Assembly: GCA_028583605.1 (NCBI GenBank)
Contig: CM053327.1
Location: 32,056,626-32,120,625 of the forward strand
DNA: 64,000 bases
DNA from: Dastarcus helophoroides
Lineage: Eukaryota > Arthropoda > Insecta > Coleoptera > Bothrideridae
Direction: 5' to 3'
The notes under the pieces are model-generated. The model did not search any database. It worked only from the letters and a program-made list of their open reading frames with translations, and was not told where the DNA came from. How positions within the stretch are numbered: position 1 is the first letter of the stretch; every line of letters begins with the position of its first letter. Position numbers and translations under genes: made by a program. Shown here one piece after another: positions 6,181-60,099 of the stretch.

Positions 6181-8620
6181 TTTTTTTTTTAAAGTTTAAT
6201 CCACTCGCAAAGGGCAACCCCTATTATGCTTTCAAATCACTGCGAGTAGAATGCGGAAACAACGATAGATGGCGATGAACAGCCTTCTGAAGCAAGGATA
6301 GGTTGTAATTGTTGGGGAAAATTCCTTTCATTAACAAGTTCCATAACTAGAAAGTTCTGTAGAAAAAAGAGTCTCCGTAGATAGAAGTCCTCACTGTGTC
6401 AAGCTGGACCGCACAGGAATTTGCTGTCTCCGACTGTTCAGTACACCTCAAGAATCTTGCCCTTGGGGGGATCAATCCTATTAGTTCCTGCGAGCATCTT
6501 TCATGATAGATAGAAAAGAGACAAGTCACCAACCATACACCTGTGCTCTAGTGTTTTGAGAGAATCGGTCAGACTCTCGTCATCAATGAGGCGAATCGCT
6601 CTTCTTTGAATTGAATCCAAGAGAGCTTAAGTGTGGTTTGGGGCTGAACTCCAAACATGAGAACAGTATTCGAGTGTTGGCCTAACTTGAGCTTTGTATA
6701 GTGTTACCAGCTGATGAGATGTGAAGTACTTTTTAGCTCTAAAAAGAAAGCCTAGCTTCTGAGAGGCGGATTTGGCAATGGCGCGCACATGATCGTCCCA
6801 AGAGAAGTTAGTGCTCGCATTCACTTATAGGATAGATAGATTAGATTCCATCGGAAGGATTTTACCGTCCATAAGTATGTTTGTTGCATTATCCCTTGAT
6901 GTTTTCTTAGAGAAAACCGCGGCCTGAGTTTTTGCAGCGTTGAAGTCGACCAAATGGTTCTTACCCCATTCCAGAATAATCTCGAGATCCCGATTAATCG
7001 TCTGCATCTGCTGTTCCCTTAGTTGATCTGAAGCAGCGATAGATAATGGTTTGTCGGAGAAAAAAGATGACACAAGGTTACTATCATCTGCATAGCTGTA
7101 TATAGGATTGGAAGTCGAAGCTAAGAGATCGTTTATGTGTAACAGAAATAAAGTAGGAGACAGAACAGAGCCCTGAGGCACCCATGCGTTAATCGCAAAT
7201 GTATCGGACGACGTCCCGAAGAGATCTGTCAGCGATAAAATTGGTTATCAAATAACAGAGTCCAGGAGGAAGACCATAAAATGTTAATTTGGTGAGAAGA
7301 GATCGGTGCCAGACTTTGTCGAAAGTCTTTGAGATATCCAATGCCACAATCCTAGCCTTACCATGTTTTTCCATAGCTGAATTACAGATATGAGTAACAT
7401 ATGCCAGTAGATGGCCAGTGGAACGTTGTTGTCTAAAACCGTATTGCTTGTCGAAGATGATTTTATTTTCCTCCAGATATTTGAGAATCTCGATGTTGAT
7501 AACCTTTTCCATCACTTTAGATATAACGGGTAACAAAGATATAGGGCGATAGTTGTTAGCCAGATTCCTTTTTCCCTTTTTAGGGACATGCTGCACTCTA
7601 GCAGATTTCCAGATGTTAGGGAATACACCTTTGTTGTAAGAGAGTGTGAACAATTTGCTTAGGACAGGAGTCAACTCTGGGGCGCACTTCTTAAGACCAA
7701 TAGCGGGAATACCATCAAGGCCAGAAGCTTTCGAGCTCAAGGATAATCTCCCTGATTGTGCGTTGTCTGAAAACAACTTCAGGCATCGAAGTGTCAACCT
7801 TAGGAAGAATAGGAGATTCTGTGTTTCGAGAATCAAGATTGGAATTTTTAGCAAACATTAAGGCTAAGATGTCAGCTTTTTCCTTGGAGGTAGTAGCAAT
7901 ATTGCTATTTTCGTCGAGTATAGGTGAAAAATTTAAAGGTGTAAAATTCTTTCCAATCGACTTTGCAAATCCCCAAAAGAACCTGGAACCGTTGGGACAG
8001 TTGACAAGCCTCTGGCGCATTTTACGGTCGAAATCACCTTTTGCCTAGTCAATAACCTGTTTACAAGAATTTCGTGCATCTACGAGTCTCGACTGAGGGA
8101 TTATTTCGCCAACGACGATATGCGTGATTTTTGCAGGAGACAGCCCGAGCACATTTTTTACTGAACCAAGATTTACTGGAGGCAGACTTCTTTTGGGAGT
8201 GGGGAATTGAGCATTCCATACCAATTAGGATAGTTTCCATGATGGATTCGGCGACTAAGGAAGGGTTGTCTGAGTTAAAGCAGACTTCCTGCCATGGGAA
8301 AGATGCAAAGAAGTCTCTTAATTCTTCCCAGTTCGCAGAGTTAAAGTGCCAAATCCCCACGGGACTGGTCTGGGAAGGAGGTGGTACATGAAGCGCGCGA
8401 GAGGCTGCTACAAGTTTGTGATCCGAATTTCCAAGCGGTGATGTCACAGAGATTTTATACGAATTTGGTGAATTTGTGAGTAAGTAGATTAGGTTGATGA
8501 GTATCTACATCAGGAATTCTTGTGGATTCCTCAACTAATTGCGATAGTCCACAAGTGATGGCGAAAGCCTCTGCCACCAGGAAGACACCATAAGCTTTAG
8601 GTTGCCCTAAAGAGTTTAAA
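6181..8620 (-). mobile_element. Jockey-like non-LTR retrotransposon, 5'-truncated and broken
   Basis: Minus-strand element with its A tail at 6181-6191 (plus-strand T run). From 5' to 3' it shows the end of an AP-type endonuclease (8447-8061; GNSDH carries the catalytic SDH motif), a linker (8020-7715), and reverse transcriptase (7854-6825). The latter includes ASGLDGIP, YRPISLLPVISKVMEKV, YGFRQQRSTGHLL, DISKTFDKVWH, MPQGSVLSP and the catalytic YADD at about 7100. A C-terminal region follows (6824-6347). At least four frame breaks make it inactive. Flanking words gttaaaagca (about 6170-6180) and gtttaaaagtaca (about 8619-8631) look like an imperfect target-site duplication inside the interrupted pseudogene. 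Confidence 0.9.
7189..7854 (-). pseudogene. Reverse transcriptase, N-terminal and palm part (relic)
   Basis: Longest intact piece of the reverse-transcriptase frame in the 6.2-8.6 kb element. It holds the fingers and first catalytic aspartate (DISKTFDKV). The frame breaks before the YADD box, which is read in the next piece (7181-6825, beginning MPQGSVLSPTLF). A working copy would copy its own RNA at a nicked target. Confidence 0.85.
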
Positions 8621-12461: not shown

Positions 12462-12690
12462 ACTTATCTTGAAACACAAATCTTGTCCCCTTATACCAAG
12501 AAAGATTAAAAAACACAATGGAGGTTGCTCTAACGCCATTCGATAGCTAAGCTATTATCTACAGTAGCTTTGGCTATTGAAACGCGTTAGAGCAACCTCT
12601 GTTGTGTTTTCTAATCTTTCTTGGTTTCAGGGGACAAGATTTGTATTTCAATTTTTGAAGATAACCAAGGACCAGTCCCTTCCAGAAAAA
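12462..12690. mobile_element. Foldback family FBH, copy 2
   Basis: Same inverted arms as the copy at 11776 (caagaaagattaaaaaacac and its inverse), with central stems around tagctaagcta. It lies in the PDZ-gene intron about 100 bp upstream (gene sense) of exon 6. The right end reads ccaaggaccagtcccttcc. Confidence 0.7.
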
Positions 12691-19435: not shown

Positions 19436-19980
19436 CGTGTGATCAGTTACATATCGGCTGGTGTTTAAATGAACTTACAAATTAATTATGCGCTTTTACC
19501 CCATCCTGGACAAACAAAAGAGAATTCTGTATATTATAAAAACCACAACATTATATCGCAGTAATCGTTTTTAAATAAACCGAATTTAGCATAAAATTGC
19601 GTAAAATTTTTCTAGTGATATCGGTATCAGTTATTTAATTAGAAACATTACATACAAACCGAAGTAACTTTAACGGAAGCATTCACTTTAGGTATGGAGA
19701 CTCTTGTTCAATCACGTATAAAACTGTTTAAAACTGCAGTACAATTCACTACTATCTGCTTAAAAAAAATCAAAAAGCAGATGCTAAACTTAATCAGTTC
19801 GAAGAAACAATATACAAATACATGGGCTCTCTGAAAAGTTTTACGATGTGGACGGCAACAAATTGGTTGGATTTTAATAAGTTGATTTTTAGTAAGTTAT
19901 TACTAAAATTTGAATATGTGCAGGACTTCGCACGGATTAGATATTTTCTAATACTTTAACGGAATATGGGATTTTAAGTT
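19436..19980. other. PDZ-gene intron, nothing recognised
   Basis: Less repetitive sequence between the tandem array and the hammerhead repeat. No exon seen. Confidence 0.4.
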
Positions 19981-19985
19981 TGAAA

Positions 19986-20028
19986 ACCAAAGACCGGTTT
20001 CGATCTTGTTAGATCTCGTCAGTTTGGT
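19986..20028 (-). ncRNA. Hammerhead ribozyme motif, sense to the PDZ gene
   Basis: On the minus strand the order is stem I strand ACCAAA, CUGACGA, stem II GAUCU/AGAUC with an AACA loop, GAAA, stem III CC/GG, GUC, and the second stem I strand UUUGGU. All catalytic-core positions (CUGANGA, GAAA, UH) are present and stem I pairs over 6 bp. Stem III has no loop, as in hammerheads thought to act as dimers. Predicted cleavage follows the C of GUC (19992/19991). It lies about 340 nt after the 5' splice site of exon 4, in the transcribed strand. Confidence 0.8.
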
Positions 20029-20070
20029 ATAACATATACCAAGTTTCATCATCAGTTTGGTATATGATAT

Positions 20071-20113
20071 ACCAAACTGACGAGATCTAACAAGATCGAA
20101 ACCAGTCTTTGGT
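20071..20113 (+). ncRNA. Hammerhead ribozyme motif, head-to-head partner
   Basis: Plus-strand ACCAAA, CUGACGA, GAUCU-AACA-AGAUC, GAAA, CCAGUC, UUUGGU. The core and stems I and II are intact. Stem III has only one good pair because GG became AG. It forms an inverted pair with the minus-strand copy at 19986-20028, separated by about 40 bp. Confidence 0.65.
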
Positions 20114-20368
20114 TTCCAGATTTCGAATGTAATAAATGTTGGTCTATTGGTCTGTGCATTAGAATCCTTGTCTTCCGGGAACTTTCCTATAGAGCAACCG
20201 CTTCGCTAGGTGGCAGTGTTTCAACTGTTGGTAGTTCAGCTGCCTATGATTCACTATACACGCCTAGAGAGCTGCATGAATTTGCAGTCTAGATTGCATT
20301 AAACTTGCATACAAAATATGGCATTATTGATCTATTTATGTTTCTTTAAGTTTTTTAAGACAACTTAC

Positions 20369-24600: not shown

Positions 24601-25735
24601 CTGCCATATTGTCCGGGTTTTTAAATTTTGCAACCGTATAGCTAGCAGTGTTGGTAACATTTGACAAAAATTATTTTAAAAAAATCCAAGGAAAAGCAAA
24701 TGGCCAGTGAACTCACCTAATAAAATACAAAATGAGCAAATTTTTTCACTGGCTTGTTGATGGGCTTAAAATTTACCCATTTAACAGATTTTTTCATTAA
24801 TGACAAAGATACTCCTGTCATCCGATGGGCTGTGAGACACACTGTACATTAACGTGGATAAAATATGTGAACGAATAGACCACGATAGTAAACAACCCAA
24901 AGAAGTAAGCATGCATAGTTAAAATTTTATAGGAAAACCAACAAAAGCAAAAATCATCTCCTAGGGTGAATTTCAAAAACAACACATTTACTTTTGCGGA
25001 ATTCGCATGTAAAAAATTGTTTCTCATTTCCAACAAACACAAATTTCATCATAAAACAAACTTTCAATGGGAGCTGGAGTTTGGTTACGCTGAATAACTT
25101 TAAATCATATTCCCTCCAGGTTCGTTGTGAGAACGCTTTCGGATCTACCCATACATCTGCAATAACCCTGCAACAAAAGGAGCCCCGTGCTATATTTTTT
25201 CTTTAAAATCACCCGAACTGTGAAACCAGGGTTTTACTGCTAACGTGGATTTGTTCCCCAGAGTGCAGTTGAAATTGTTACAGAGAGCCATTAGCATCAC
25301 TCAGCTCAACTTGGCCCTTGATGAATGATATTATGTCGGTTTAAATTACGAAACATATCACTTGTGTCCAGGCCTACTTATCTCGGACGCATTTAAATGA
25401 AAATGCTTGGCTTTTCACTAAAGCTGCAAGAGCAATTAATGCTTCAAAACAAATTAAAACAGCAATGGTGTAACAACTCAAACTCAAACATAAATGCTGG
25501 ATCCATTCGTAAACTGTTTGTAAACGTAGCTTCGCGCTAAGATTGCCATTACATCACAAGTATGAACTAAGATTAAAAATCGGAGTCAATTCAGTTGACC
25601 AAATTCTTCCTCTTAGTGTGTCAACACTAGGAGGAAGAAATATGAAACCGAAGTGCAGCGAACATTTAAAATTTAATTCGAAATAATGTTTTAAAATTAC
25701 GTGGGGGTAAATACAATTTTGAAATATGCAAGAAG
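24601..25735. other. PDZ-gene intron, nothing recognised
   Basis: Unique-looking intron sequence. A plus-strand frame at 24994-25206 has no support beyond being open. Confidence 0.4.
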
Positions 25736-25911
25736 AATGCAACCTAGACTACAAATTCATGCAGCCCTCCAGGCGTGTATGGTGAATCATAGGTAGCTGA
25801 ACTACCAACAGTTGAAACACTGCCACCTAGCGAAGCGGTTGCTCTCTAGGAGAGTTCCCAGAAGACAAGAATTCTATAATGCACAGACCAATAGGTTTGA
25901 ACATTTATTAG

Positions 25912-25957
25912 ATTAGAAGTTTGGAAACCAAATACTGGTTTCGATCTTGTTAGATCT
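25912..25957 (-). ncRNA. Half hammerhead (truncated)
   Basis: On the minus strand the 3' half of the motif (stem II to stem I) is present, but CUGACGA and the first stem I strand are replaced by spacer sequence, so it cannot fold alone. Confidence 0.7.
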
Positions 25958-26083
25958 TCTTGCATACGACATTGTTGGCGATGGCCATAGTTTCTCTATG
26001 GATCAATAGGTGGTAGTACTAAAGAGTCACTCGCTTGACGCCTGTGATTGTTTTAGCACTTACTTGTCGGAACATTTACTAGC

Positions 26084-26157
26084 ATTCGAGTTGGATATAC
26101 CAAACTGACGAGATCTAACAAGATCGAAACCGGTATTTGGTTTCCAAACTTCGAATC
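26084..26157 (+). ncRNA. Complete type-I hammerhead ribozyme
   Basis: Stem I has an inner helix ACCAAA/UUUGGU and outer helices GUUGGA/UCCAAAC and AUUCGA/UCGAAU separated by small internal loops. The core is CUGACGA (26105-26111), stem II GAUCU-AACA-AGAUC, then GAAA (26126-26129). Stem III is CC/GG with no loop. The cleavage triplet is GUA with predicted cut 26135/26136. Every conserved core base is present. The palindromic ACCGGU in stem III would let two molecules pair, as proposed for short-stem-III hammerheads. Confidence 0.87.
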
Positions 26158-26462
26158 TAATAAATGTTCAAACCTATGGGTCTGTGCATTATAGAATCCT
26201 TGACTTCTGGGAACTCTCCTAGAGAGCAACCGCTTCGCTAGGTGGCAGTGTTTCAACTATCGGAAGTTCAGCTGCCTATGATTCACTATACACACCTGGA
26301 GGGCTGCATGAATTTGTAGTCTAGGTTGCATTCTTCTTGCATACGACATTGTTGGCGATGGCCATAATAGTTTCTCTATGGACCAATAGGTGGTAGTACT
26401 AAAGACTCACTCGCTTGACGCCTGTGATTGTTTTAGTACTTACTTGTCGGAACATTTATTTA

Positions 26463-26537
26463 GCATTCGAGTTGGATATACCAAACTGACGAGATCTAAC
26501 AAGATCCAAACCGGTATTTGGTTTCCAAACTTCGAAT
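26463..26537 (+). ncRNA. Second direct hammerhead copy, core-mutated
   Basis: Same layout 381 bp downstream, but the GAAA box reads CAAA (26507). This changes the core base G12 that acts in catalysis, so the copy is predicted to be dead or very weak. Stems I and II are unchanged. Confidence 0.75.
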
Positions 26538-26575
26538 CTAATAAATGTTCAAACCTATTGGTCTGTGCATTATAG

Positions 26576-27039
26576 GACAATTTTGAAAGTTAAAAATTTC
26601 CGCTGGAGGATTTATGTCAATCGCTCTTTTCCCGGATCCCATCGAATTTCTAACAGGCTGTACATTTATAACGAAATAAATTTTCAAGTGCCTTGAAAGT
26701 CTAAGCCAAAGGGCGATTTCATTAAGAAGCACACTCCATCCTCTTGGATTTATGTATATCCTTTGATAACCGCAGGATGCCCCAGCTTAAAGATATATAT
26801 TTTAGACAAGAGCTTCAGTAAGCTGTTTTGATATATTTAGCCTATCCAATAATATTAGATTCAGATGAGGATAAGGCACAAGTTTAATCTACAAAGACAG
26901 AAACGAGCAAGGCTCTCTGAATTTCCAGAGAAACGATCCTTTGTTTAATTTAGTGGACTTGAAAAGTGCTAGTCAACCAATGAATTATTGCTTTTCTTAT
27001 ACAGGCTTTGCCAATAATTATGTAGTTAGTTAGTTAATT
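26576..27039. other. PDZ-gene intron, nothing recognised
   Basis: No exon or repeat identified. Confidence 0.35.
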
Positions 27040-35740: not shown

Positions 35741-36879
35741 AGACAAAATTATAGTGGAAAAAGGAAACATTACTGATGAACTTTCGTTTTCGATTGAAAT
35801 TTTGACCACCAAAGGATTATTAAGATGGATTGATTGTGTCCGAATGCGTTAGATCCTAATGAAGGCAAAACTATCGTGGAAAAAGAAAATTTTACTGATG
35901 AACTTTCGTTCACCATTGAAACTTTGACCACCAAATGATAATTAAGATGGATCGATTTTGTGTAAATACGTAGGATTCTGATGATGATGATGATGATGGC
36001 GAAATGCTCTTTCTTTCCACATGAAGCACATGAAGCCAAGATTATGGTGGAAAAATAAAATATTACTGATGAACTTTCATTTTTCATTGAAATTTTGACC
36101 ACCAGATTATTATTAAGATGAATCGATTGTGTCCGAATACGTTAGATCCTAATGAAGACAAAATTATGGTGAAAAAAGAAAGTATTACTGATAAACTTTC
36201 GATTTTTATTAAAATTTTCCCCACCAAATAATTAAAACGGATCGATTGGGTCCAAATACGTAAGGTCCTGATAATGGTGATGCTGGCGATATGCTCTTTA
36301 TTTTCAAATGAAGCTTCTGGTTAGTTGCTAAGGTCTCTAGCATAACGATTCGATAAGTTACAGCTTACAAAAATGTACCACATGAAGACAAAATTATGGT
36401 GGAAAAATAAAATATTACTGATGACCTTTCATTTTTCATTGAAATTTTGACCACCAAATTATTATCAAGATGATCGATTGCGTCCAAATACGTTAGATCC
36501 TAATGAAGACAAAATCATCGTGGAAAAAGAAAAAATTACTACTGAACTTTCATTCCTCATTGAAATCTGGGCCACCAAATGATTATTAAGATGGATGATT
36601 TTGTCTGAATACGTAATATCCTGATGATGATGGTGGGGATATGCCATTTTGTTTCAAAGAAAGCTTCTGGTCGGCTTCTAAGGTCTCTAGCATAAGGTAC
36701 AGCTTAAAAAAATGTACCACACCACTTGAAGGCAAAACTATAGTGGAAAAAGAAAGTATTACTGATGAACCTTCGATTTTATTAAAATTTTTTCCACCAA
36801 ATAATTAAGACGGATCGATTGGCCCCGAATACGTAAGCTCCTGATAACGATGATGCTGGCGATCAGCTCTTTCTGGATT

Positions 36880-37735
36880 CTGGATTCGTTGTGGGTTGCC
36901 TAAAGTTTAGGCCAGAACTTAAGCCACCCTTTCCGGGCCCATTGTGCTATCCCCGTGATAGAGGTGTCCTTGGTCATTCATTCAGCCACCCAACCTTGTT
37001 GAGAAACTGAAGAACGTCCCTTGGATGCGCCTCTCTCAAACTGGCCACACTAGGCCAGAAGTCCCCTAGCGTGCATCCACTGATTGATGCTAGTGCCGGG
37101 CAGTGACACATCACCTGCTCGACACTCTCATCTTCTTCTAAACACCCTCTGCAGCTCGGGTCGTTTATAATTCCCATTCGGCATGTTTGTTATTCATGCC
37201 CATATGGCTTTGTGTTTACGATAAATTTCTTCGTTAAGTAGGGATCTTATGGTTGATCTCGTCAGAGGAAGGGTTGATTCTGGTCCAACGAATCGTCCCT
37301 CCGAACCCTTCCTCGCCTGTTTGTCAGCGCGTTCGTTTCCCTCTTTTCCAGAATGTCCTTTGATCCATATTAGATCAATTGCATTCTCTCATGATAGACG
37401 TTCTAAAGCTAGATGGCAGTTCCATACCAGCACTGAGTTTGTTTTCACATTCCTCAGGGCCTTAAGGGCTGTCTGGTTGTCCGTCTTTATTTGGATATAT
37501 TTTCCTGTAATATTCAGTTGCGTTATTTGTTCGGCGCTATATAAAATTCCCAACATTTCCGCTTGAAAGATTGTTGAGTATTTATCTAACTTAATACTTA
37601 CATTTAGGTTCAGGTCTTCCGAGAAGATTCCTGTTCCAGTGCCCGTATTTGTTTTCGATCCATCCGTGTATATATATACCTACGTCTGGTATCCTTGCTT
37701 GTAGTTCATCCATTTTTATACGGTAGGTCTATGCA
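36880..37735 (-). pseudogene. Non-LTR retrotransposon fragment: RNase H domain and C-terminus
   Basis: Minus-strand reading gives an RNase H domain with its catalytic residues: TDGSK (first Asp), FQAEML (Glu), TDNQTAL (second Asp) and WIKGHSGKEGNERAD (last Asp). A C-terminal Cys/His region follows (37177-36974; CRGC..EDESVEQVMCHCPAL), which is usual for I, R1 and LOA-type elements. One in-frame stop lies within the RNase H part. The fragment sits inside the satellite array and has replaced part of one unit. Confidence 0.88.
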
Positions 37736-40371
37736 ATTCGATAAGGTACGGCTTAGAAAAATGTGCTACACCACAAGGCAAAATTATAGTCGAAAGAGAA
37801 AGTATTACTGATGAACTTTCGATTTTTATTAAAATTTTTCCCACCAAATAATTAAGATGGATCGATTGGGTCCGAATACGTAAGATGTTGATAATGATGA
37901 TGCTGGTGATATGCTCTTTATTTCCAAATGAAGCTTCTGGTCAGTTGCTAGGGTCTCTAGCATAATGATTCGATAAGGTACAGCTTAAAAAAATGTACCA
38001 CAAGAAAACATTCATATTGAAAAAATAAAATATTACTGATGAACTTTCGTTTCTCATTGAAATATTTACCATCAAATATCAATAAGGTGCAGCTTAGACA
38101 AATGCACCATATGAAGACAAAATTAGAGCGGAAAAAGAAAATGTTACTGATGAAATTTCGTTTTTCATTAAAACTTCGACCACCAAATGATTATTAAGCT
38201 AAGCAAAACCATTCGATAAGGTACAGTTTAGAAAAATGTACCTCGTGAAGGCGAAATTATGGTGGAAAAAGCAAATATTACTGATGAACATTCGTTTTTC
38301 AATTAAATTTTGACCACCAAATGATTACTAACAGCTTAGAAAAATGCACCACATGAAGACAAAATTCTAGTGGAAAAAGAAAATATTACTGATGAACTTT
38401 CGTTTTTCATTAAAACTCCAGCCACCAAATGCTAGATTCTGTAGCAAAACCATTCGATACGGTACAGCTTAGAAAAATGTACTTCGTTAAGACAAAATTA
38501 TGGTGGAAAAAGTAAATATGATGAACATTCGTTTTTCATTGATATTTTGACCACCAAATGATTATTAGGATGAACTTATTGCATCGTAATACGTAAGATC
38601 ATGAAGGCGATATGCTATTGAGTTTGAAATGAAGCTTCTGCTTGGTTTATAAAGTCTCTAGTACAATCATTCGATAAGGTACAGCTTAGAAAAATGTGAT
38701 CATCGATGTGTGTGAACACGTAAGATTCTGATGATGATGATGATGATGACGATATGCTCCTTGTTTTCAAATGAAGCACATGAAGACAAGGTTATTGTGA
38801 AAAAATAAAATATTACTGTTGAACTTTCATTTTTCATTGAAATTTTGACCACCAAATGATTATTTAAATAGATCAATTGTATCCGAATACGTTAGATTCT
38901 AATGAAGATAAAATTATCGTGGAAAAAGAAAATGTGACTGATGAGCTTCCATTTTTCATTGACATTTTGGCCACCAAATGAAGTGTCCGAAACGTAAGAT
39001 CCTGATGGTTGGGATATGCCATTTTGTTTCACAGAAAGCTTCTGGTCCGCTTCTAAAGTCTCTAGCATAACAATTCGATAAGGTACAGCTTAGAAAAATG
39101 TACCACACCACATGAAGGCAAAATTATAGTGGAAAAAGAAAGTATTACTGATGAACTTTCGATTTTTATTAAAATTTTCCCCACCAAATAATTAAGACGG
39201 ATCGATTGGGTCCGTATCTGTAAGATCCTGATAATGATGATACTGGCGATATCCTCTTTATTTCCAAATGAAGCTTTTAGTTAGTTACTAGGTTCTCTAG
39301 TGTAACGATTCGATAAGGTACAGCTTAGAAAAATGTACCATATGAAGACGAAATTATGGTGAAAAAATAAAATATTAGTGATGAACTTTCATTTTTCATT
39401 GAATATTTAACCACCAAATGATTACTAAGATGGATCAATTGTGTCCAAATACGTTAGATCCTAATAAAGACAAAATCATCGTGGAAAAAGAAAATATTAC
39501 TAGTGAATTGTCATTCTTCATTGAAATCTGGACGACCAAATGATTATTAAGATGGATGATTGTGTCTGAATACGTAAGATTCTGATGAAAGCTTCTGGTC
39601 CATTTCTAAAGTCTCTAGCATAACAATTCGATGAGGTACAGCTTAGAAAAATGTAGTACATAACTTGAAGGCAGAATTATAGTCGAAAAAAAAGTATTAC
39701 TGATGAACTTTCGATTTTGATTAGAATTTTCCCCACCAACTAATTAAGACGGACCGATTGGGTCCAAATACGTAACATGCTGATAATGGTGATGCTGGCC
39801 ATATGCTCTTTATTTCCAACTGAAGCTTCTGGTCAGTTGATAGAGTCTCTAGCATAATGATTCAATAAGGTACAGTTTAGAAAAATGCACCACATGAAGA
39901 CAAAATTAGAGCGGAAAAAGAACATATTACTGATGAACTGTCGTTTTTCACTAAAACTTCGACCACCAAATGATTATTAAGCTAAGGTGTCTAGCAAAAC
40001 CATTCGATGAGAAGTGAAGACAAAATTATGGTGGAAAAAGCAAATATTACTCATGAACATTCGTTTTCCATTGAAATTTTGACCACCAAATGATTACTAA
40101 CAGCTTAGAAAAATGCACCATATGAAGACAAAATTATTGTGGGAAAAGAAAATAGTAGTGATGAACTTTCGTTTCTCATTGAAATGTTTAACACCAAATA
40201 TCGATAACGCATAGCTTAGAAAAATGCACCACATGAAGACAAAACTCTAGTGGAAAAAGAAAATATTACTGATGAACTTTCGTTTTTCATTAAAACTTCG
40301 ATCACCAAAAAGCTAGGTTCTATAGCAAAACCACTCGATACGATCAGCATAGAAAAATGTATCTCGTGAAG

Positions 40372-40550
40372 TCCAAAGAAGGTTTCAGCCCTTTACCACA
40401 TCTGAACTGGCATTTTCAAGCGCTTGAAAATGCCAGTTCTGCTGGAGAAATACGTATAGCGTAATTATTTATTTAATTGTCGACGTGGTAAAGGGGTGAA
40501 ACCTTCTTTGGACTTAATCACAAGCCACAGTGTTTAGTTCAGTGCTTTAG
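40372..40550. mobile_element. Small hairpin element inserted in the satellite
   Basis: The inverted ends tccaaagaaggtttcagccc (40372) and its match gggtgaaaccttctttgga (near 40495-40513) enclose a second, inner palindrome (ctggcattttcaagcgcttg..). A 37-bp non-palindromic tail follows. The 12-bp word tatctcgtgaag flanks it on both sides (40360-40371 and 40551-40562), consistent with a target duplication or with the satellite unit itself. Confidence 0.6.
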
Positions 40551-42151
40551 TATCTCGTGAAGACAAAATTATGGTGGAAAAAGCAAATATTATTGATGAA
40601 CATTCGTTTTCCATTGAAATTTTGACCACCAAATGATTATTAAGATGAGTTGATTGTATCCTAATACGTAAGATCATGAAGGCGATCCGCTATTGAGTTT
40701 GAAATAAAGCTTTTAGTGGAATTCTAGTGTCTCTAGTGTAATCATTCAGCTTAGAAAAATGTGATGATCGATTGTGTGTGAATACATATCATTCTGATGT
40801 TGATGCTCGCGATATGCTCTTTATTTCCAAATGAAGCACATGAAGACAAGATTATGGTGAAAAAATAAAATTTTCATTTTTCATTGAAATTTTGGCCACC
40901 AAATGATTGTTAAGATGGATCGATTGTGTCCGAATACGTAGGATGATTATGGTGGCGATGTACTATTTAATTTTAAAAAAAGCTTCTGGTTAGTTTCTAA
41001 GGTTTCAAGCAGTAGCAATCGATAGGGTACAGCTTAGCAAAATGTGCCACATGAAGGCAAAATTATAGTGAAAAAGAAAGTATTACTGATGAACTTTCGA
41101 TATTTATTAAAATTTTCTTCATCAAATCAATAAGACGGATCGATTGGCCCGAATACTTAAGATCCTGATAATGATGATGCTGGCGATACGCTATTTAGTT
41201 TCAAATGAAGCTCCTGGTTGGTTGCTAAGGTCTCTAACATAATGATTCGATAATGTTCAGCCCAGAAAAATGTACCACATGAAGACAAAATTATGCTGGA
41301 AAAATAAAATATTACTGATGAATTTTCATTTTTCATTGAAATTTTGACCACCAAATGATTATTAAAATGGATCGATTGTGTCCGAATACGTTAGATCCTA
41401 ATGCAGACAACATTATCGTGGAAAAAGAAAATATGACTGATTAACTTTCATTTTTCATTGAAATTCTTGCCACCAAATGATTATTAAGATGGATAGACTG
41501 TATCCGAATACCTAAGATCCTAATGATTATAGTGGCGATATGCTATTTAGTTTCAAAGACATGGTTACTTTCTAAGATTTCTAGCATAACCATTCGATAA
41601 GGTATAGCCTAGAAAAATGTACCACATGAAGGCAGAATTATAGTGGAAAAAGGAAGCATTACTGATGAACTTTCGTTTCTTTATTAAAATTTTGGCCACC
41701 AAATGATTAAGATGGATCAATTGGGTTCAAATACGTAAGATCCTGATGATGATGATGCTGGCGATATGCCATTTAGTTTCCAATGAAGCTTCTGGTGAGT
41801 TCTAGGGTCTCTAGTATAATGATTCGATAAGGCACAGCTTAGAAAAATGTATCATATAAAGACACAATTATAGCCCAAAATGAAAATATTACTGATGAAT
41901 TTTCCTTCTTCATTGAAATTTTGACCACCAAAAGGTAAGTATTAACAACGATCTGTTTTGACTGAATGCGAAAGATTACGAAGCAGATATTCTGATTAAT
42001 TTCAGACGAAGCGTCTGGTCAGTTCTTAGAATCTGTACCATATTCAACTGATTGATTATGCACAACCTTCCAAGTATGAAGATAAAATTTTGGGGCAAAA
42101 ATACACTATTACTGATGAATGTTGGTTTCTCATCAAAATTTTAAACTCCAA

Positions 42152-46330: not shown

Positions 46331-48805
46331 TCATTTGCATTTCGATCGACAGGGTTTTTCTTTTGAACATAAATTAAATGTAAAGCAAATTTTTTTTTTT
46401 TTTTTTGATTTATAACAATTGGTGAACAGAAAGAAAATTATAATCCTGTATAAAATATAATATTTCAAGCTCAAGAAAGTAAAGAAAAATATGTAATTGA
46501 TTTTATGAAAAGATCTAGTTCTCTTACAACTGCTTAGTTTATTTGATAAACATTCTTTCATGGTATGTTTTAATTCTAAATTCAAGAAATTATCTTGGAT
46601 TTGATCAATATAATTTTTGAGGTCTCTCATAAAATACAAAGTTATAGGTTTTTCTTTTTCGTTTAAATGTTCACTTCGTAAATTTGATTTGAAAAGTTCT
46701 AATCGATTGGAATTGCAGTTTTGATTCTTGGTGCAAACGTTAACATTGGCAATATTTTCTCTGCCTGTCTCAATGGATTCTAATTTAATAGAAATTTTAT
46801 TAATTTTTATTGGTTTATCCGTTGTGTTCAAAATAGTCGTAATGGCTGTATTATCATTTAAAACTCTCACAATGCTATTAGATAAGTATATACCATCTTT
46901 TAATAATAATTTTGGAACGATACCTTCTTTTATTGTGGGATTGTCCACATGTATTTTAATAACTTGTTCGCATCTAGGTTTTACAATATTTGACAAATTC
47001 ATCAAATTGAAATTAGAAGCAATAGAATTATTTGAATTGGTAGGCACAGTAGAAATAATAGGATTCGAATTATATGAATTAGAACAAATAGTAGATTTAG
47101 AACAATTTGAGTTGGCAGAAATAGCAGAATTTGGAAAATTTGATTTACGCAAATTGGTAGAAATAGTACACTTTGAATTGCTAGAATTAGTAAAGTTTGA
47201 ATTAGTAAAGATAGTCGAATTACAATTATTTGAATTAGGAGATATATAAGAATTCGATTTGTTTGATTTAGTAAATATAGTAGAATTCGAATTATTTGAA
47301 TTAGTAGGAATAGTAGAAATAGAATTATTTGAATTAGTAAATGTAGTAGAACTTGAATTATTACAATTAGTAGCAGTAATATTCTTCAATTGATATAGAT
47401 CAAGAGAATTTACATTGTCAATACTTAACAATTTATCTTTACATCTAATGTCACAATTGTGCGAAGTAAGAAAATCATTTCCTAAGATTCCGTCATAAGG
47501 AATAGGAAAATCATTAGCAACAATATGTAACGTGTGAAGCAATAATTTATTACCAACATTTAGTTCAATGTGGCAATAACCTAAGGTTTTTGTTTTATTA
47601 TTAACGTCTAAATCTATACCATTTAAAGTAAACATCGTATCATTGAAAAATGGAACATCGCTTTTTAGGTTTTCTAATTTTATTAAAGAAATGTCCGCAC
47701 CGGAGTCAATCATGAAAGTGATAGGTTGATAATTAAATTGGTGGGACTCTAAATTAACATAAAAAGGAGAACCTGTTTTAATTAAGGAAATCTGAGCTGA
47801 TCTGAATTTTGTTGCCCGAGGTTCGTACTGAAAATTTTGAATTTGTTCACTTTGAATTCCAACTACATTACCTCTAGAAGTTGAAGGATTATTTTGATTT
47901 TGTGCTTTCCTCATTTCATTATATTGACGTTTCCTGCATTCTTGAATTAAGTGTCCCTTATTTTTACAGTAATTGCAAATTTTAATATCATTAGGGCTTT
48001 GAATATTTGAATTTGGATAATTGTTATAGGTATTAGAATTTTCTCGATAAGATTTATTTGGGATTTGCTGAGAATTTGAATTGAATCGAATATTATCTTC
48101 ATTTTTTGAAATTCTAATTCTACAGTTAAAATTATTCTGACCTGATTTATTGCAGTAAGTGCAAAATTTATGATTATATGAGCTTAAATTGTGATATTTT
48201 GCCATTTCGATTTTGGATTTAATTTGTTGCTCTTCGCTTAATGCAATAGATACAGCTTCTTCTAATGATTCCGGTTTTTGCGATTTTACTAAAATTTTTA
48301 ATTCTTTTTCCAAACCATTAATAAAAACATCAAGTGATTGTTGCTTATACATATCGATTAAGGTATCTCTAGTGATTCTAGGTAATTTATGATCAATAGT
48401 GCTTACTAAGTTAATAAAACAATTTTCTAATTTTGTAGAGAAGGAAAGTACATTTTCACCTGAATTTTGTTTACAGGCGCTAAGTTCAAATTGTCTTTGA
48501 CTTTGAGTGCGTCTCTCCGAATAGGCATTTAATAAATGTTGTTTCAAAGATTCCCAGTCGTCAAATGTTCTATTACGAATAATGGCTCTAGCGTGATCGG
48601 TTAATCGAGTCTTAATTATAGCAAACAATGCTCTTTTAAATCTAGGTTTAACTAAATTTAAAGCATCTTCACAGTTGTCCAAAAATTCATTCAGTTTTAG
48701 TTTATTACCGTCAAATCTTTCAATCATTTTTTCAGCAATTTCTATTGAAATGAAATCGTTTAAATCACTTGCACTAGCACTATTTTCGGTTGAAGCTGTT
48801 GCCAT
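46331..48805 (-). CDS. Gag polyprotein with aspartic protease, pol-deleted
   Basis: Open frame of 824 residues from the ATG at 48805, chosen because its context (caccATGG) is much better than that of an in-frame ATG at 48856. The N-terminal third is Gag-like and helical. Two zinc-knuckle sites follow: the first has Gln where His is expected (CTYC..Q..C), and the second is a good CX2CX4HX4C (CNYCKNKGHLIQEC). A retroviral-type protease is next, with active site IDSGAD and flap-side ILGNDFL. A long Ser/Asn/Thr-rich stretch made of repeated motifs (STIFTNSNNS type) comes after, then a segment resembling the lead-in to reverse transcriptase (NRLELFKSNLRSEHLNEKEK). The frame then runs into unrelated sequence, marking the pol deletion. 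Confidence 0.85.
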   Translation of the reverse strand: MATASTENSASASDLNDFISIEIAEKMIERFDGNKLKLNEFLDNCEDALNLVKPRFKRALFAIIKTRLTDHARAIIRNRTFDDWESLKQHLLNAYSERRTQSQRQFELSACKQNSGENVLSFSTKLENCFINLVSTIDHKLPRITRDTLIDMYKQQSLDVFINGLEKELKILVKSQKPESLEEAVSIALSEEQQIKSKIEMAKYHNLSSYNHKFCTYCNKSGQNNFNCRIRISKNEDNIRFNSNSQQIPNKSYRENSNTYNNYPNSNIQSPNDIKICNYCKNKGHLIQECRKRQYNEMRKAQNQNNPSTSRGNVVGIQSEQIQNFQYEPRATKFRSAQISLIKTGSPFYVNLESHQFNYQPITFMIDSGADISLIKLENLKSDVPFFNDTMFTLNGIDLDVNNKTKTLGYCHIELNVGNKLLLHTLHIVANDFPIPYDGILGNDFLTSHNCDIRCKDKLLSIDNVNSLDLYQLKNITATNCNNSSSTTFTNSNNSISTIPTNSNNSNSTIFTKSNKSNSYISPNSNNCNSTIFTNSNFTNSSNSKCTISTNLRKSNFPNSAISANSNCSKSTICSNSYNSNPIISTVPTNSNNSIASNFNLMNLSNIVKPRCEQVIKIHVDNPTIKEGIVPKLLLKDGIYLSNSIVRVLNDNTAITTILNTTDKPIKINKISIKLESIETGRENIANVNVCTKNQNCNSNRLELFKSNLRSEHLNEKEKPITLYFMRDLKNYIDQIQDNFLNLELKHTMKECLSNKLSSCKRTRSFHKINYIFFFTFLSLKYYILYRIIIFFLFTNCYKSKKKKKICFTFNLCSKEKPCRSKCK

Positions 48806-49008
48806 GGTGAAGTCGATGACAATGAGGACAGAGAGTTCGTGTAAAGAAAAATTCAACTTACAGTTTGTTGAACAGGTGTATTCTTCTTAAATGTTGTTCG
48901 ATCCTTGTAGTAGAATTGGTAGAGTAGTAAATTTGGAATCGATGTGGGTACACGATTGGAGATTTGTAGAAATTTAGAAAATTCAGCACTTCTGACACCA
49001 CTTTTTTT

Positions 49009-55566: not shown

Positions 55567-55606
55567 GTAATTTTGCAAGTCAAGTGAACGACATTTCGGA
55601 TTAAAC

Positions 55607-56584
55607 ATGTTTAAAGTTGTGCTCTTAATACCGATAGTGTATGTTAGTTTTGTTAATTGCCTTTGTGACAGGACAGCATTAGCACACGTGGATGCAATTG
55701 TTTTACAAACTCGCGCTTATTCCTACAAAGAGAAGCAAACCAACGTACATTTTAATCTCCTGGACGACTACGAAGTCGTGGACGTAATCCATGGTAATGC
55801 CACTGTTTTATGCGAAGGCATAGTGAAGAATTTTCCAAAATTACGAGCCCTGAGCCTAATCGATGCTAACATAAGCGCCGTCGAGCCGATGGCTTTCCAG
55901 AATGTCCCAGTCTTAGAATCTTTATCTTTGGCAGTGAATAAATTAACCGAAGTGAAAGATGGCGATTTCAATTACATTAAGTCTTTACGAGTTTTATATC
56001 TTTCAAAAAACAAGATATCAAAGATAGAGATAGCAGCCTTTGATTCCATGCCAAATTTGGAGCGAATTTATCTCGACAGAAACGAATTGACCATGGTGGA
56101 TATGTGGTTTGATAAAAGCAAAAAATTGAAATTTATCGATTTGTCATTTAATCAAATCAGTACAATATCGGATAACGCCATGAGAAAACTACCAGCAGAC
56201 CACAAACTCGTCTATCGTTTAGCTCACAACCAAATAAGTTACATACCACCTCAGTTGTTCGTCGATCCACGACCCTCAGTTACTCTGGAGCTGGACTACA
56301 ACGAATTGAGAACACTGGATTTGAATGTGTTGGAGAATTTGCGCAACCACATTAACGCTCTTAATCTCAATTATAATAAAATCAGTTGTTTGTCTGAGGA
56401 CGTTTTACGTGAAATGCAGGTGATGGGATATTTTTCGTTGTATCTTTACAATAATCCATTGGATTGCAACTGCGAAAAGAAGCTACAGTCGATGGTGGAT
56501 CGAGAACTTTTAGAACGATTTTATTTTAATTCTTCTCTGCAGTGCGATCACAGGCATTTGTTCCCAATTGAGTATAACGTATAA
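55607..56584 (+). CDS. Secreted leucine-rich-repeat protein, single exon
   Basis: 325 residues with no introns. Residues 1-18 form a signal peptide (MFKVVLLIPIVYVSFVNC). About eight to nine LRRs of 23-25 residues follow from about residue 75, with typical LxxLxLxxNxI spacing (LRVLYLSKNKISKI, LKFIDLSFNQISTI, INALNLNYNKISCL). The C-terminal cap is PLDCNCEKKL..LQCDH, an LRRCT-type Cys pattern. There is no membrane segment or GPI-type tail, so it is likely secreted. Such proteins bind other proteins outside the cell; the partner cannot be told. Codon use and composition stand out from the AT-rich flanks. It lies outside the PDZ gene on the opposite strand. Confidence 0.9.
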   Translation: MFKVVLLIPIVYVSFVNCLCDRTALAHVDAIVLQTRAYSYKEKQTNVHFNLLDDYEVVDVIHGNATVLCEGIVKNFPKLRALSLIDANISAVEPMAFQNVPVLESLSLAVNKLTEVKDGDFNYIKSLRVLYLSKNKISKIEIAAFDSMPNLERIYLDRNELTMVDMWFDKSKKLKFIDLSFNQISTISDNAMRKLPADHKLVYRLAHNQISYIPPQLFVDPRPSVTLELDYNELRTLDLNVLENLRNHINALNLNYNKISCLSEDVLREMQVMGYFSLYLYNNPLDCNCEKKLQSMVDRELLERFYFNSSLQCDHRHLFPIEYNV

Positions 56585-58190: not shown

Positions 58191-58648
58191 AAACCTAATT
58201 TTTAAAATGTAAATTTTATCATCAATAGATACTATAAATCCATTTTTAAACTTCATAAACGAACAAGAACAAACGATAAAATTTACATTGGAAATTGAAT
58301 TATATAATAAACTACCCTTCCTCGATGTGTTAATTGAGAGGGGCCAAAATGGAGATACACATCTGCTTATAGGAAACCAACAAACACAAATAGATACCTA
58401 AATTACACATCAAATCACAGTAAAAATATAAAAATAGGAGTAATAACTTCTTTAATTGACAGAGCTAAAAATATCAGCACAAGTTCTGAAATATATAATA
58501 AAGAAAAAATTAATATTACATCAGTATTACAAAAAAATGGGTATCAAAAAGATTTTGTGAAAAAAGTTATAAAAAGAAGAGAAACAGGATCACACAATCT
58601 AATCATGGCATCATAAACACATCACCCATTCAAAATTAAAAAAAAACC

Positions 58649-59140
58649 TTGATTATTCCATACATACCAGGTCTGTCGGATAAAATCAAACGAATAGGCC
58701 AAAAGTTCAATATACGTACAGCATTCAAAACCCAAAATACTCTAAGATCATTACTAGTAAATACAAAACCAAAAAATGAAACACAACATACTAAAAATTG
58801 TATTTATAAAATAACCTGCGAATGCAACAAAATTTACATAGGTGAAACATCCAGACCTATGTGGATTCGTATTAACGAACATAAGAATTACCTAAGTAAG
58901 GGAGATTTTTCAAATTCGAAAATTTGCGAACACTCTTTTCAATACGATCACATAATTCAGTGGACAAAATCCTGCATTATTGGCAAAGAAACACATTATA
59001 AAAAAAGAAAAATTAAAGAAGCAGTTTTAATTTTACTAAATGGAGATAACTGTGTCGCAAATTGTTCGATTGATATTAACGGTATGTGGCTGCCATTGTT
59101 AAAACGAGAAAAACAACTGGGTCGCCTTAGAATCATCTAG
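58649..59140 (+). pseudogene. GIY-YIG endonuclease of the Penelope-like element
   Basis: 163-residue open frame: IYKITCECNKIYIGETSRPM holds the Cys-rich lead and the YIG motif, R..EH follows (RINEHKNYL), then the conserved Glu in KIKEAVLIL. In Penelope-like elements this domain nicks target DNA for reverse transcription. This piece is intact but separated by a frameshift from the reverse transcriptase. Confidence 0.88.
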
Positions 59141-59215
59141 GGAATAACCTAATAAACTGTCAGAATTACTTTCTGACAGCTTACACAAATTTGTAAAGGA
59201 ATAAATTTGAATTGG

Positions 59216-59260
59216 TTTTCTGACGACGGGCAGAGAATAACACTACCCGAAACGTTAAAA
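59216..59260 (+). ncRNA. Hammerhead motif of the Penelope-like element
   Basis: UUUU, CUGACGA (59220-59226), a stem GGG/CCC with a 15-nt loop (one extra C before the stem), GAAA (59249-59252), stem III C/G with no loop, UU, then AAAA pairing with the first UUUU. Hammerheads with a minimal stem III are known from the terminal repeats of Penelope-like elements. It lies 80 bp after the endonuclease stop, the expected place. Confidence 0.7.
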
Positions 59261-59340
59261 TTTTAAATAATCTTGTTGTTATTTATTTTTTACGTCGTAG
59301 TTTTAAGTGTTTTTCAGTGTTGAGTCCCAAACAGCGATTG

Positions 59341-60099
59341 ACAAACCAAGATCCAACGCAGATTGCCACTCCTTAATAGAAGGTACTGAAATTTAGGATT
59401 GTGAAAGGAGTGACCGGCGAAGAAAGAGACAATAAAACTGCATACAAATATAAATACTTTGCAAATAAATTACAGAGAATATTTCAATTCTTATCAAAAC
59501 TCCAAATTTAAAACTTGAATTATCAGTTTCTATGAGTTGAACCAGCAATTTTAAGAAAAATAATAAAATTTGAAATTTTCAAAAATCAATATCTACCTTT
59601 TAAAAGAAGTCAAAATTTCGAAATAAAGTGGAATCATGCTTTTAAAAAAGTCGGAATATTAATGAATTTTTTAAAGGTTTTAAAAACTCCAACTCTCAAT
59701 CTATGTTGGAAATAATAGTAATAGGGCAAAACCACCGAAAATGGGATGCACTATGCATTATTAGCTTAATGTTATTTTATTTTTGAAGTAATGGACTAAC
59801 TAAATCGATTTGTTTCATAATCATCAATAAACCACTGAGGGCTGGCCACGAAAGCCTCTTCAAATTTCTGCCTTGTTAAAATCGATGCGTAACCACAACC
59901 ATCCAATTTGGATTATTTTACAATTTGGTTGATGGTCGCGCTTTCGAAACGCAAGCGAATTCTCCACAGAAGAATGTGCTTTATCCATCGATCATCGATC
60001 GTTCTCACTAATTATGTAATAACCTAGTTCAAATGAACCCCACTTCAAATAAACTATTCTCTCTCATCATCCAAAACTGGTTGTGTTTCGTAACGTGAG
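59341..60099. other. Intergenic, nothing recognised
   Basis: AT-rich, no gene or repeat identified. Confidence 0.35.

What the first reader, a model, noticed from the sequence alone, without database searches (positions are those of the whole stretch)
25738..26575. 381-bp tandem hammerhead repeat: a candidate insect retrozyme
A complete type-I hammerhead (26084-26157) repeats 381 bp later, so transcription and self-cleavage would release a 381-nt linear RNA that could circularise. Stem III is the palindrome ACCGGU with no loop, which favours action as a dimer. Inverted arms of 220 bp add a foldback arrangement. Small tandem hammerhead repeats (retrozymes) are known in some animals. I do not know of this sequence family being described.
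Basis: partly seen in the sequence, partly recalled or inferred. Interest (0 to 1): 0.9.

Follow-up and report, generated by a model that had tools for sequence, protein, structure and literature searches.

The report
Ribozyme retroelement with Penelope insertion scars
This stretch of an insect genome belongs to a large family of tiny non-coding jumping elements that carry a self-cutting RNA, and the scars they leave on insertion match those of a Penelope-type jumping gene in the same genome, which points to the enzyme that copies them.

Summary
In detail: two type I hammerheads (HHR) 381 bp apart, with a 233-bp inverted arm. The element spans 25725-26576 between exact 12-bp target-site duplications (TSD). 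It is an animal (non-LTR) retrozyme, highly repeated in this 539-Mb insect genome. This copy's second HHR carries G12 to C, so it should not release a 381-nt monomer.

The new part is how it inserts. Of 40 loci read, 33 have two arms (in 28 of these, 103-1255 nt each), all head to head with 3' ends outward. In the 28 whose outer ends are both at a recurrent site, one end is at site A and the other at site B. TSDs are mostly 12 bp. Inner ends are scattered and ignore the HHR cut. Both arms carry the same sequence variants.

A Penelope-like element (PLE) family in the same genome shows the same geometry, two 3' sites used one per side, similar TSDs and the same target motif. Best reading: a PLE protein copies one multi-unit or circular retrozyme RNA from both nicked target strands at two internal start sites. 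Papers read here name PLEs only as candidate mobiliser.

The parts
25713..25724 (.). Left target-site duplication ACAATTTTGAAA
25725..25957 (-). Inverted arm, outer 3' end at unit site A (..CTTGCATA on the - strand)
   Evidence: 233 nt, 95% complementary to 26111-26343; end class A
25926..25957 (-). Partial hammerhead in the inverted arm (no CUGACG)
   Evidence: Rfam HH9 model positions 25-54, 15.4 bits, E 1.5, not significant alone; alignment
25958..26576 (+). Direct arm, about 1.6 units of 381 bp, outer 3' end at unit site B (..GTGCATTATAG)
26087..26158 (+). Hammerhead 1, core intact; predicted cut 26135/26136; stem III ACCGGU
   Evidence: Rfam RF02275 34.4 bits
26468..26539 (+). Hammerhead 2, G12 to C at 26507, expected inactive
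   Evidence: Rfam RF02275 30.3 bits; base read
26577..26588 (.). Right target-site duplication ACAATTTTGAAA
19963..19969 (.). Putative 7-bp target-site duplication AATATGG of the second insertion, left copy (weak)
   Evidence: score 5.5, below the cut-off of 6 used in counts
19970..20037 (-). Second insertion, inverted arm with hammerhead (19972-20037); outer end is not at site A or B
20059..20314 (+). Second insertion, direct arm with hammerhead (20059-20130); outer end at site A
20315..20321 (.). Putative target-site duplication AATATGG, right copy (weak)
58338..59484 (+). Remnant of a Penelope-like element: C-terminal protein pieces, then the 3' region with an HHR-like motif (59220-59253) and the two recurrent 3' sites (about 59448 and 59482)
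   Evidence: no Pfam match for the two short window frames themselves

Best explanation
The element is a non-coding, non-autonomous animal retrozyme with a unit of about 379-381 nt. Shown by sequence: in the two-armed copies read, both ends of the insert are 3' ends of the RNA sequence; in the 28 with assignable ends these are two different fixed unit positions, A and B; TSDs are about 12 bp; both arms of an insertion carry the same source variant; arms run up to 3.3 units and stop at unrelated places. Inferred: multimeric transcripts are cut by hammerheads working in pairs through the ACCGGU palindrome and the monomers are circularised; a PLE protein (reverse transcriptase joined to a GIY-YIG endonuclease, probably a dimer) binds one such RNA, nicks an AT-rich target on both strands about 12 bp apart, just inside GTTAAA-like half-sites, starts reverse transcription internally at A on one strand and at B on the other, and runs round the RNA until it stops; the two cDNAs are then joined head to head by end joining.
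For: Minus-then-plus order in 33 of 33 two-armed loci of 40 and in 13 of 13 two-armed loci of 16 in a second sample. Heterotypic A/B ends in 28 of 28 and 8 of 8 assignable loci (two-sided p for 28 of 28 at one half is 7e-9). TSD score >=6 in 31 of 40 against 2% with swapped flanks; 17 of the 31 are 12 bp. Inner ends spread over the unit, 3 of 66 within 10 nt of the HHR cut against 3.6 expected. Arms of one insertion agree at 128 of 136 source-polymorphic cells against 0.70 permuted, 0 of 2000. PLE of the same genome: opposite-strand neighbours minus-then-plus 12 of 12; one end at each of two 3' sites in 11 of 11 readable pairs; TSDs 11-15 bp in 9 of 11 pairs, four of them 12 bp. Retrozyme half-site matrix scores PLE half-sites 0.76 against -2.10 in shuffles (0 of 5000) and -2.12 at random window sites (0 of 3000). 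A lizard PLE protein cuts and extends both strands and starts internally at two adjacent sites in vitro (PMC11167929, parts 1-2 of 4).
Against: No biochemistry and no RNA data. PLE and retrozyme share no clear sequence: one of six alignments is notable (p=0.003) and it includes host bases. In vitro the lizard PLE protein showed no difference in start site between strands (PMC11167929), unlike the strict A/B rule here. 7 of 40 loci have one arm, five of them without a TSD by the score used, and 5 two-armed loci have an end at neither site. Over all bases the similarity of the two arms is modest (p=0.027). The full PLE frame tested matches RVT_1 but not the GIY-YIG model of Pfam directly; GIY-YIG is inferred from a homologue. 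No other retrotransposon family was run as a negative control for ends or motif.
Confidence: 0.72

Rival explanations
1. As the main reading, but the template is a linear multimeric transcript of tandem genomic copies, so circularisation plays no part in insertion.
For: In vitro, PLE insertion did not need HHR cleavage and unprocessed RNA was the main substrate (PMC11167929). Inner ends do not mark the HHR cut.
Against: HHR core intact in 107 of 113 instances. Units within an arm agree at 217 of 223 polymorphic cells. No plus-then-minus order, as read-through of an old head-to-head copy would give. None of these is decisive.
Confidence: 0.3
2. Another reverse transcriptase of the genome, such as a LINE, mobilises the retrozyme, and the likeness to PLE scars is coincidence.
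For: Other RT genes exist in the window (RVT_1 at 7192-7857). No clear sequence shared with the PLE.
Against: Several separate features agree with the PLE: arm order, one end at each of two 3' sites, TSD length and half-site motif.
Confidence: 0.12
3. L1-style twin priming on one linear RNA: the inverted and direct parts are neighbouring pieces of one transcript. This was my first reading of the window copy.
For: In the window copy the inverted part ends in unit order where the direct part begins, with a 12-nt overlap.
Against: In the other copies the inner ends are unrelated and the arms repeat the same units.
Confidence: 0.03
4. DNA-level origin: a satellite or foldback DNA transposon rearranged by recombination or replication.
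For: Inverted arms and tandem units exist; such structures can arise from DNA.
Against: Fixed outer ends with variable inner ends, TSDs, and dispersed young copies.
Confidence: 0.03

Closest known systems
Animal non-LTR retrozymes (Cervera and de la Pena 2020, PMC7229834; parts 1-4 of 6 read)
   Same: Type I HHR in short tandem repeats of 150-450 bp, GC below 50%, TSDs longer than 4 bp, many dispersed copies, predicted highly paired circle
   Different: The parts read do not describe head-to-head arms, two fixed different ends or a shared target motif; the mobiliser is left open with PLEs as strong candidate. Here no RNA was examined.
Penelope-like elements (PMC3846280, passages; PMC11167929, parts 1-2 of 4)
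   Same: Head-to-head inverted structure, short TSD, tail on one of the inverted pLTRs, HHR motif, two internal RT start sites, both strands extended in vitro
   Different: PLEs encode RT and endonuclease; the retrozyme unit has no such gene. The rotifer paper explains the inversion by self-priming.
pDo500 satellite of Dolichopoda cave crickets (PMC2837043; listing and start of abstract only)
   Same: Hammerhead inside tandem repeats of an insect genome
   Different: Treated there as a satellite DNA; its ends were not compared here
Plant LTR retrozymes (PMC4918200; search listing and start of abstract, and what PMC7229834 says of them)
   Same: Non-autonomous retroelements with HHRs and circular RNA
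   Different: Type III HHRs in LTRs with 4-bp TSDs, units of 600-800 nt

Membership tests
Animal non-LTR retrozyme | Type I hammerhead | tested here: met
   Rfam RF02275 matches, significant but below the curated score; core intact in 107 of 113 instances
Animal non-LTR retrozyme | Short tandem repeats (about 150-450 bp) of GC below 50% | tested here: met
   381-bp unit, GC 42.5%; several loci with 2-3 full units
Animal non-LTR retrozyme | Dispersed copies with TSDs longer than 4 bp | tested here: met
   31 of 40 loci with TSD score >=6, 17 of them 12 bp
Animal non-LTR retrozyme | No LTR, primer binding site or polypurine tract | not tested
   No dedicated search was run
Animal non-LTR retrozyme | Self-cleavage and linear plus circular RNA of unit length in tissue | not testable with these tools
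   No RNA data. Predicted circle is highly paired (z -7.2)
Penelope-like element | Encodes RT with GIY-YIG endonuclease | tested here: not met
   The 381-bp unit is too short for such a gene, and no frame of 90 aa or more overlaps 25738-26575
Penelope-like element | Insertion form: inverted arms, short TSD, two alternative 3' ends | tested here: met
   Same form as the PLE of this genome; it works like one but is not one
L1-type twin-primed insertion | Inverted and direct parts contiguous in one linear RNA | tested here: not met
   Fits the window copy, but inner ends of the other copies are unrelated

The most novel reading that the evidence does not exclude
One retrozyme RNA circle with two RT start sites is loaded on a PLE protein dimer; each protomer takes one target strand and one start site and runs round the circle, which gives head-to-head multi-unit arms with obligatorily different ends. 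The same two-site rule would explain the puzzling inverted pseudo-LTR and one-sided tail of PLEs themselves.
Probability: 0.5. Interest if true: 0.85.

Novelty: new variant of a known kind. Interest (0 to 1): 0.74.

Why it matters
Animal retrozymes are known ribozyme circles whose means of insertion is open; the paper read here offers LINEs or PLEs as candidates (PMC7229834). This genome gives a matched pair, a young non-coding retrozyme family and a PLE with the same insertion scars, and a sharp rule to test: one A end and one B end, a TSD of about 12 bp and GTTAAA-like half-sites. If right, the retrozyme is to the PLE what a SINE is to a LINE. It would also give genomic evidence for two-strand, two-site reverse transcription, which the lizard PLE protein shows in vitro (PMC11167929).

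Tried and rejected
Rfam at gathering threshold: nothing in the window. Rfam on 4 of the 12 PLE loci: nothing at E<=1; the PLE HHR-like motif rests on a pattern that I wrote after reading the motif (11 instances in 10 of 12 loci). HHR patterns in viral contigs and prokaryote genome contigs: 0 matches. A first script count of HHRs failed through a bad pattern and was redone. Twin priming, my first reading, was dropped. A hybrid retrozyme-PLE insertion at L048 was tested and rejected: only a 6-base match near the two ends. Sequence homology between PLE and retrozyme was not shown. Host: insect by odorant receptors; a beetle is only suggested by named PLE relatives such as Diabrotica at 55%; the LRR protein search did not settle it. 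No library used here names the RT element Penelope; the name is mine, from RT plus GIY-YIG homology and the end structure.

Rows dropped: 12 of 40 loci are not among the 28 (5 two-armed with one end at A and the other at neither site, of which L011 runs into N; 7 one-armed). 16 loci picked from the matches, partly because they showed two arms; 8 are not among the 8 assigned (L078, L079, L085, L086, L087, L088, L091 cut or unclear; L082 reads as A/B only by eye); 26 of the 28 passed TSD score >=8 and made the matrix. PLE pairs: 11 readable of 13, since L067/L068 and L069/L070 lack one end; 2 of the 11 gave no TSD, and no null was computed for PLE TSDs. One search used the 150 rows printed of 151 matches. 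Two of the 7 sites belong to one indel, and gene conversion between arms could also make them agree. One PLE target (L061/L062) and one retrozyme target (L037) are the same site, so the matrix test is not fully independent.

Full report
WHAT IS THERE. The finding is real. Two type I hammerheads lie 381 bp apart at 26087-26158 and 26468-26539 (Rfam RF02275, 34.4 and 30.3 bits; below the curated 52, but E 6.9e-5 and 0.0014 for the whole window). The element is larger than stated: an inverted arm 25725-25957 and a direct arm to 26576, bounded by exact 12-bp copies of ACAATTTTGAAA. Stem III is the loop-less palindrome ACCGGU. The second ribozyme has G12 changed to C (26507), so this copy should not free a monomer (inference from the known core). 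A second, older insertion of the family lies at 19970-20314.

THE FAMILY. The window lies in a 539-Mb genome with 110 matches to the insect odorant-receptor family PF02949, which rang in 0 of 14 control genomes. A unit query gave 1768 first-look candidates, of which 40 were scored, with 119 matches. A query with the older copy gave 2915 candidates, 40 scored and 49 matches. I read 38 fetched loci plus the two in the window. In 61 full units from 39 loci the median distance to the consensus is 0.26%, so most copies are young; the window copy is older (2.9%). The 41-nt hammerhead varies by 0.0004 per site against 0.0075 elsewhere, though other stretches are as conserved (42 of 343 windows at or below its value). 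The core is intact in 107 of 113 instances, and 26 of 40 loci hold two or more intact ribozymes on one strand. The window unit and the consensus circle fold better than shuffled sequence (z -4.2; z -7.2).

HOW IT INSERTS. Of 40 loci, 33 have two arms, each time minus then plus, so that the 3' ends of the RNA sequence point outward on both sides; 7 have one arm. Outer ends recur at two unit positions, A (..CTTGCATA) and B (..GTGCATTATAG). In the 28 loci with both ends at such a position, every one has one A and one B. In the other 5 two-armed loci one end is A and the other neither. TSD scores of 6 or more occur in 31 of 40 loci against 2% for swapped flanks; 17 of the 31 are 12 bp. A second sample of 16 loci, from the older query, had 13 two-armed loci, all minus then plus, and 8 of 8 assignable ones were A/B. 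In the 28 loci arms are 103-1255 nt long. Inner ends are spread over the unit and do not mark the ribozyme cut: 3 of 66 within 10 nt, 3.6 expected. At 7 positions that are polymorphic among insertions, the two arms of one insertion agree at 128 of 136 cells against 0.70 after permutation (0 of 2000 reach it); units within an arm agree at 217 of 223 cells. Over all bases the likeness of the arms is weaker (median 0.0058 against 0.0113, p=0.027). So one RNA species most likely supplies both arms.

THE PARTNER. A remnant of a PLE lies at 58338-59484. Its family has at least 151 matches in the genome (150 of 3153 candidates scored). A long frame (L055) has an RT domain and aligns over 494 columns, 40% identical, with a protein that carries a GIY-YIG domain; Pfam does not reach GIY-YIG in the frame itself. 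Opposite-strand neighbours within 5 kb are minus then plus in 12 of 12. Its 3' ends recur at two sites about 35 nt apart, and in 11 of 11 readable pairs one end is at each (read by eye). TSDs of 11-15 bp were found in 9 of 11, four of them 12 bp and three 13 bp. Outside the TSD both families favour GTTAAA-like half-sites. A matrix from 52 retrozyme half-sites scores 18 PLE half-sites 0.76, against -2.10 in shuffles (0 of 5000) and -2.12 at random window sites (0 of 3000). A retrozyme (L037) and a PLE (L061/L062) sit at the same place in copies of one repeat. What they do not clearly share is sequence: one of six alignments is notable, and it takes in host bases.

WHAT IS KNOWN. Animal retrozymes are described; their mobiliser is left open, with PLEs as strong candidate (PMC7229834, parts 1-4 of 6). 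A lizard PLE protein cuts and extends both strands and starts internally at two adjacent sites, with no difference in start site between strands (PMC11167929, parts 1-2 of 4). Rotifer PLEs show inverted pLTRs, a tail on one of them and TSDs of 8-10 bp, explained there by self-priming (PMC3846280, passages). Passages of a review (PMC7761336) and of a Schistosoma paper (PMC8490949) were also read. In the listings of the searches, and in what I read, I found no report of head-to-head retrozymes or of matched retrozyme and PLE ends. That is not proof of absence: most subscription papers are not held, two PLE-hammerhead papers among them.

VERDICT. Membership in the animal retrozymes: met on the sequence features tested, untested on RNA. 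Working as a PLE-mobilised element: well supported by insertion scars, not shown biochemically, and without a LINE control. A circle as template is likely but not proved.

Noticed in passing
window 20035-20065: Extra bases between the two arms of the second insertion form an imperfect palindrome and contain CTGATGATGAAAC on the minus strand, like an HHR without stems II and III; origin unexplained.
   Followed up: no
L037 and L061/L062: A retrozyme and a PLE inserted at the same place (AACCTTTGTTGT) in two copies of one repeat.
   Followed up: partly
window 12512-12608: A 97-nt near-perfect inverted repeat with GCGTTAGAGCAACC (sub-threshold miRNA-model matches), probably a MITE and similar to the repeat hit at L037 and L061/L062.
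   Followed up: no
L048:176-395: A one-armed retrozyme ending at site B lies about 1.1 kb from a PLE match; no TSD joins the two.
   Followed up: yes
window 7192-7857 (-): Reverse transcriptase fragment, RVT_1.
   Followed up: no
window 46334-48886 (-): Long open frame with aspartyl protease match and weak gag and zinc-knuckle matches.
   Followed up: no
window 36030-41932: Several arrays of repeats of about 110-135 and 230-240 bp that look related.
   Followed up: no
window 55598-56581 (+): Leucine-rich-repeat protein frame; named relatives are weak.
   Followed up: partly
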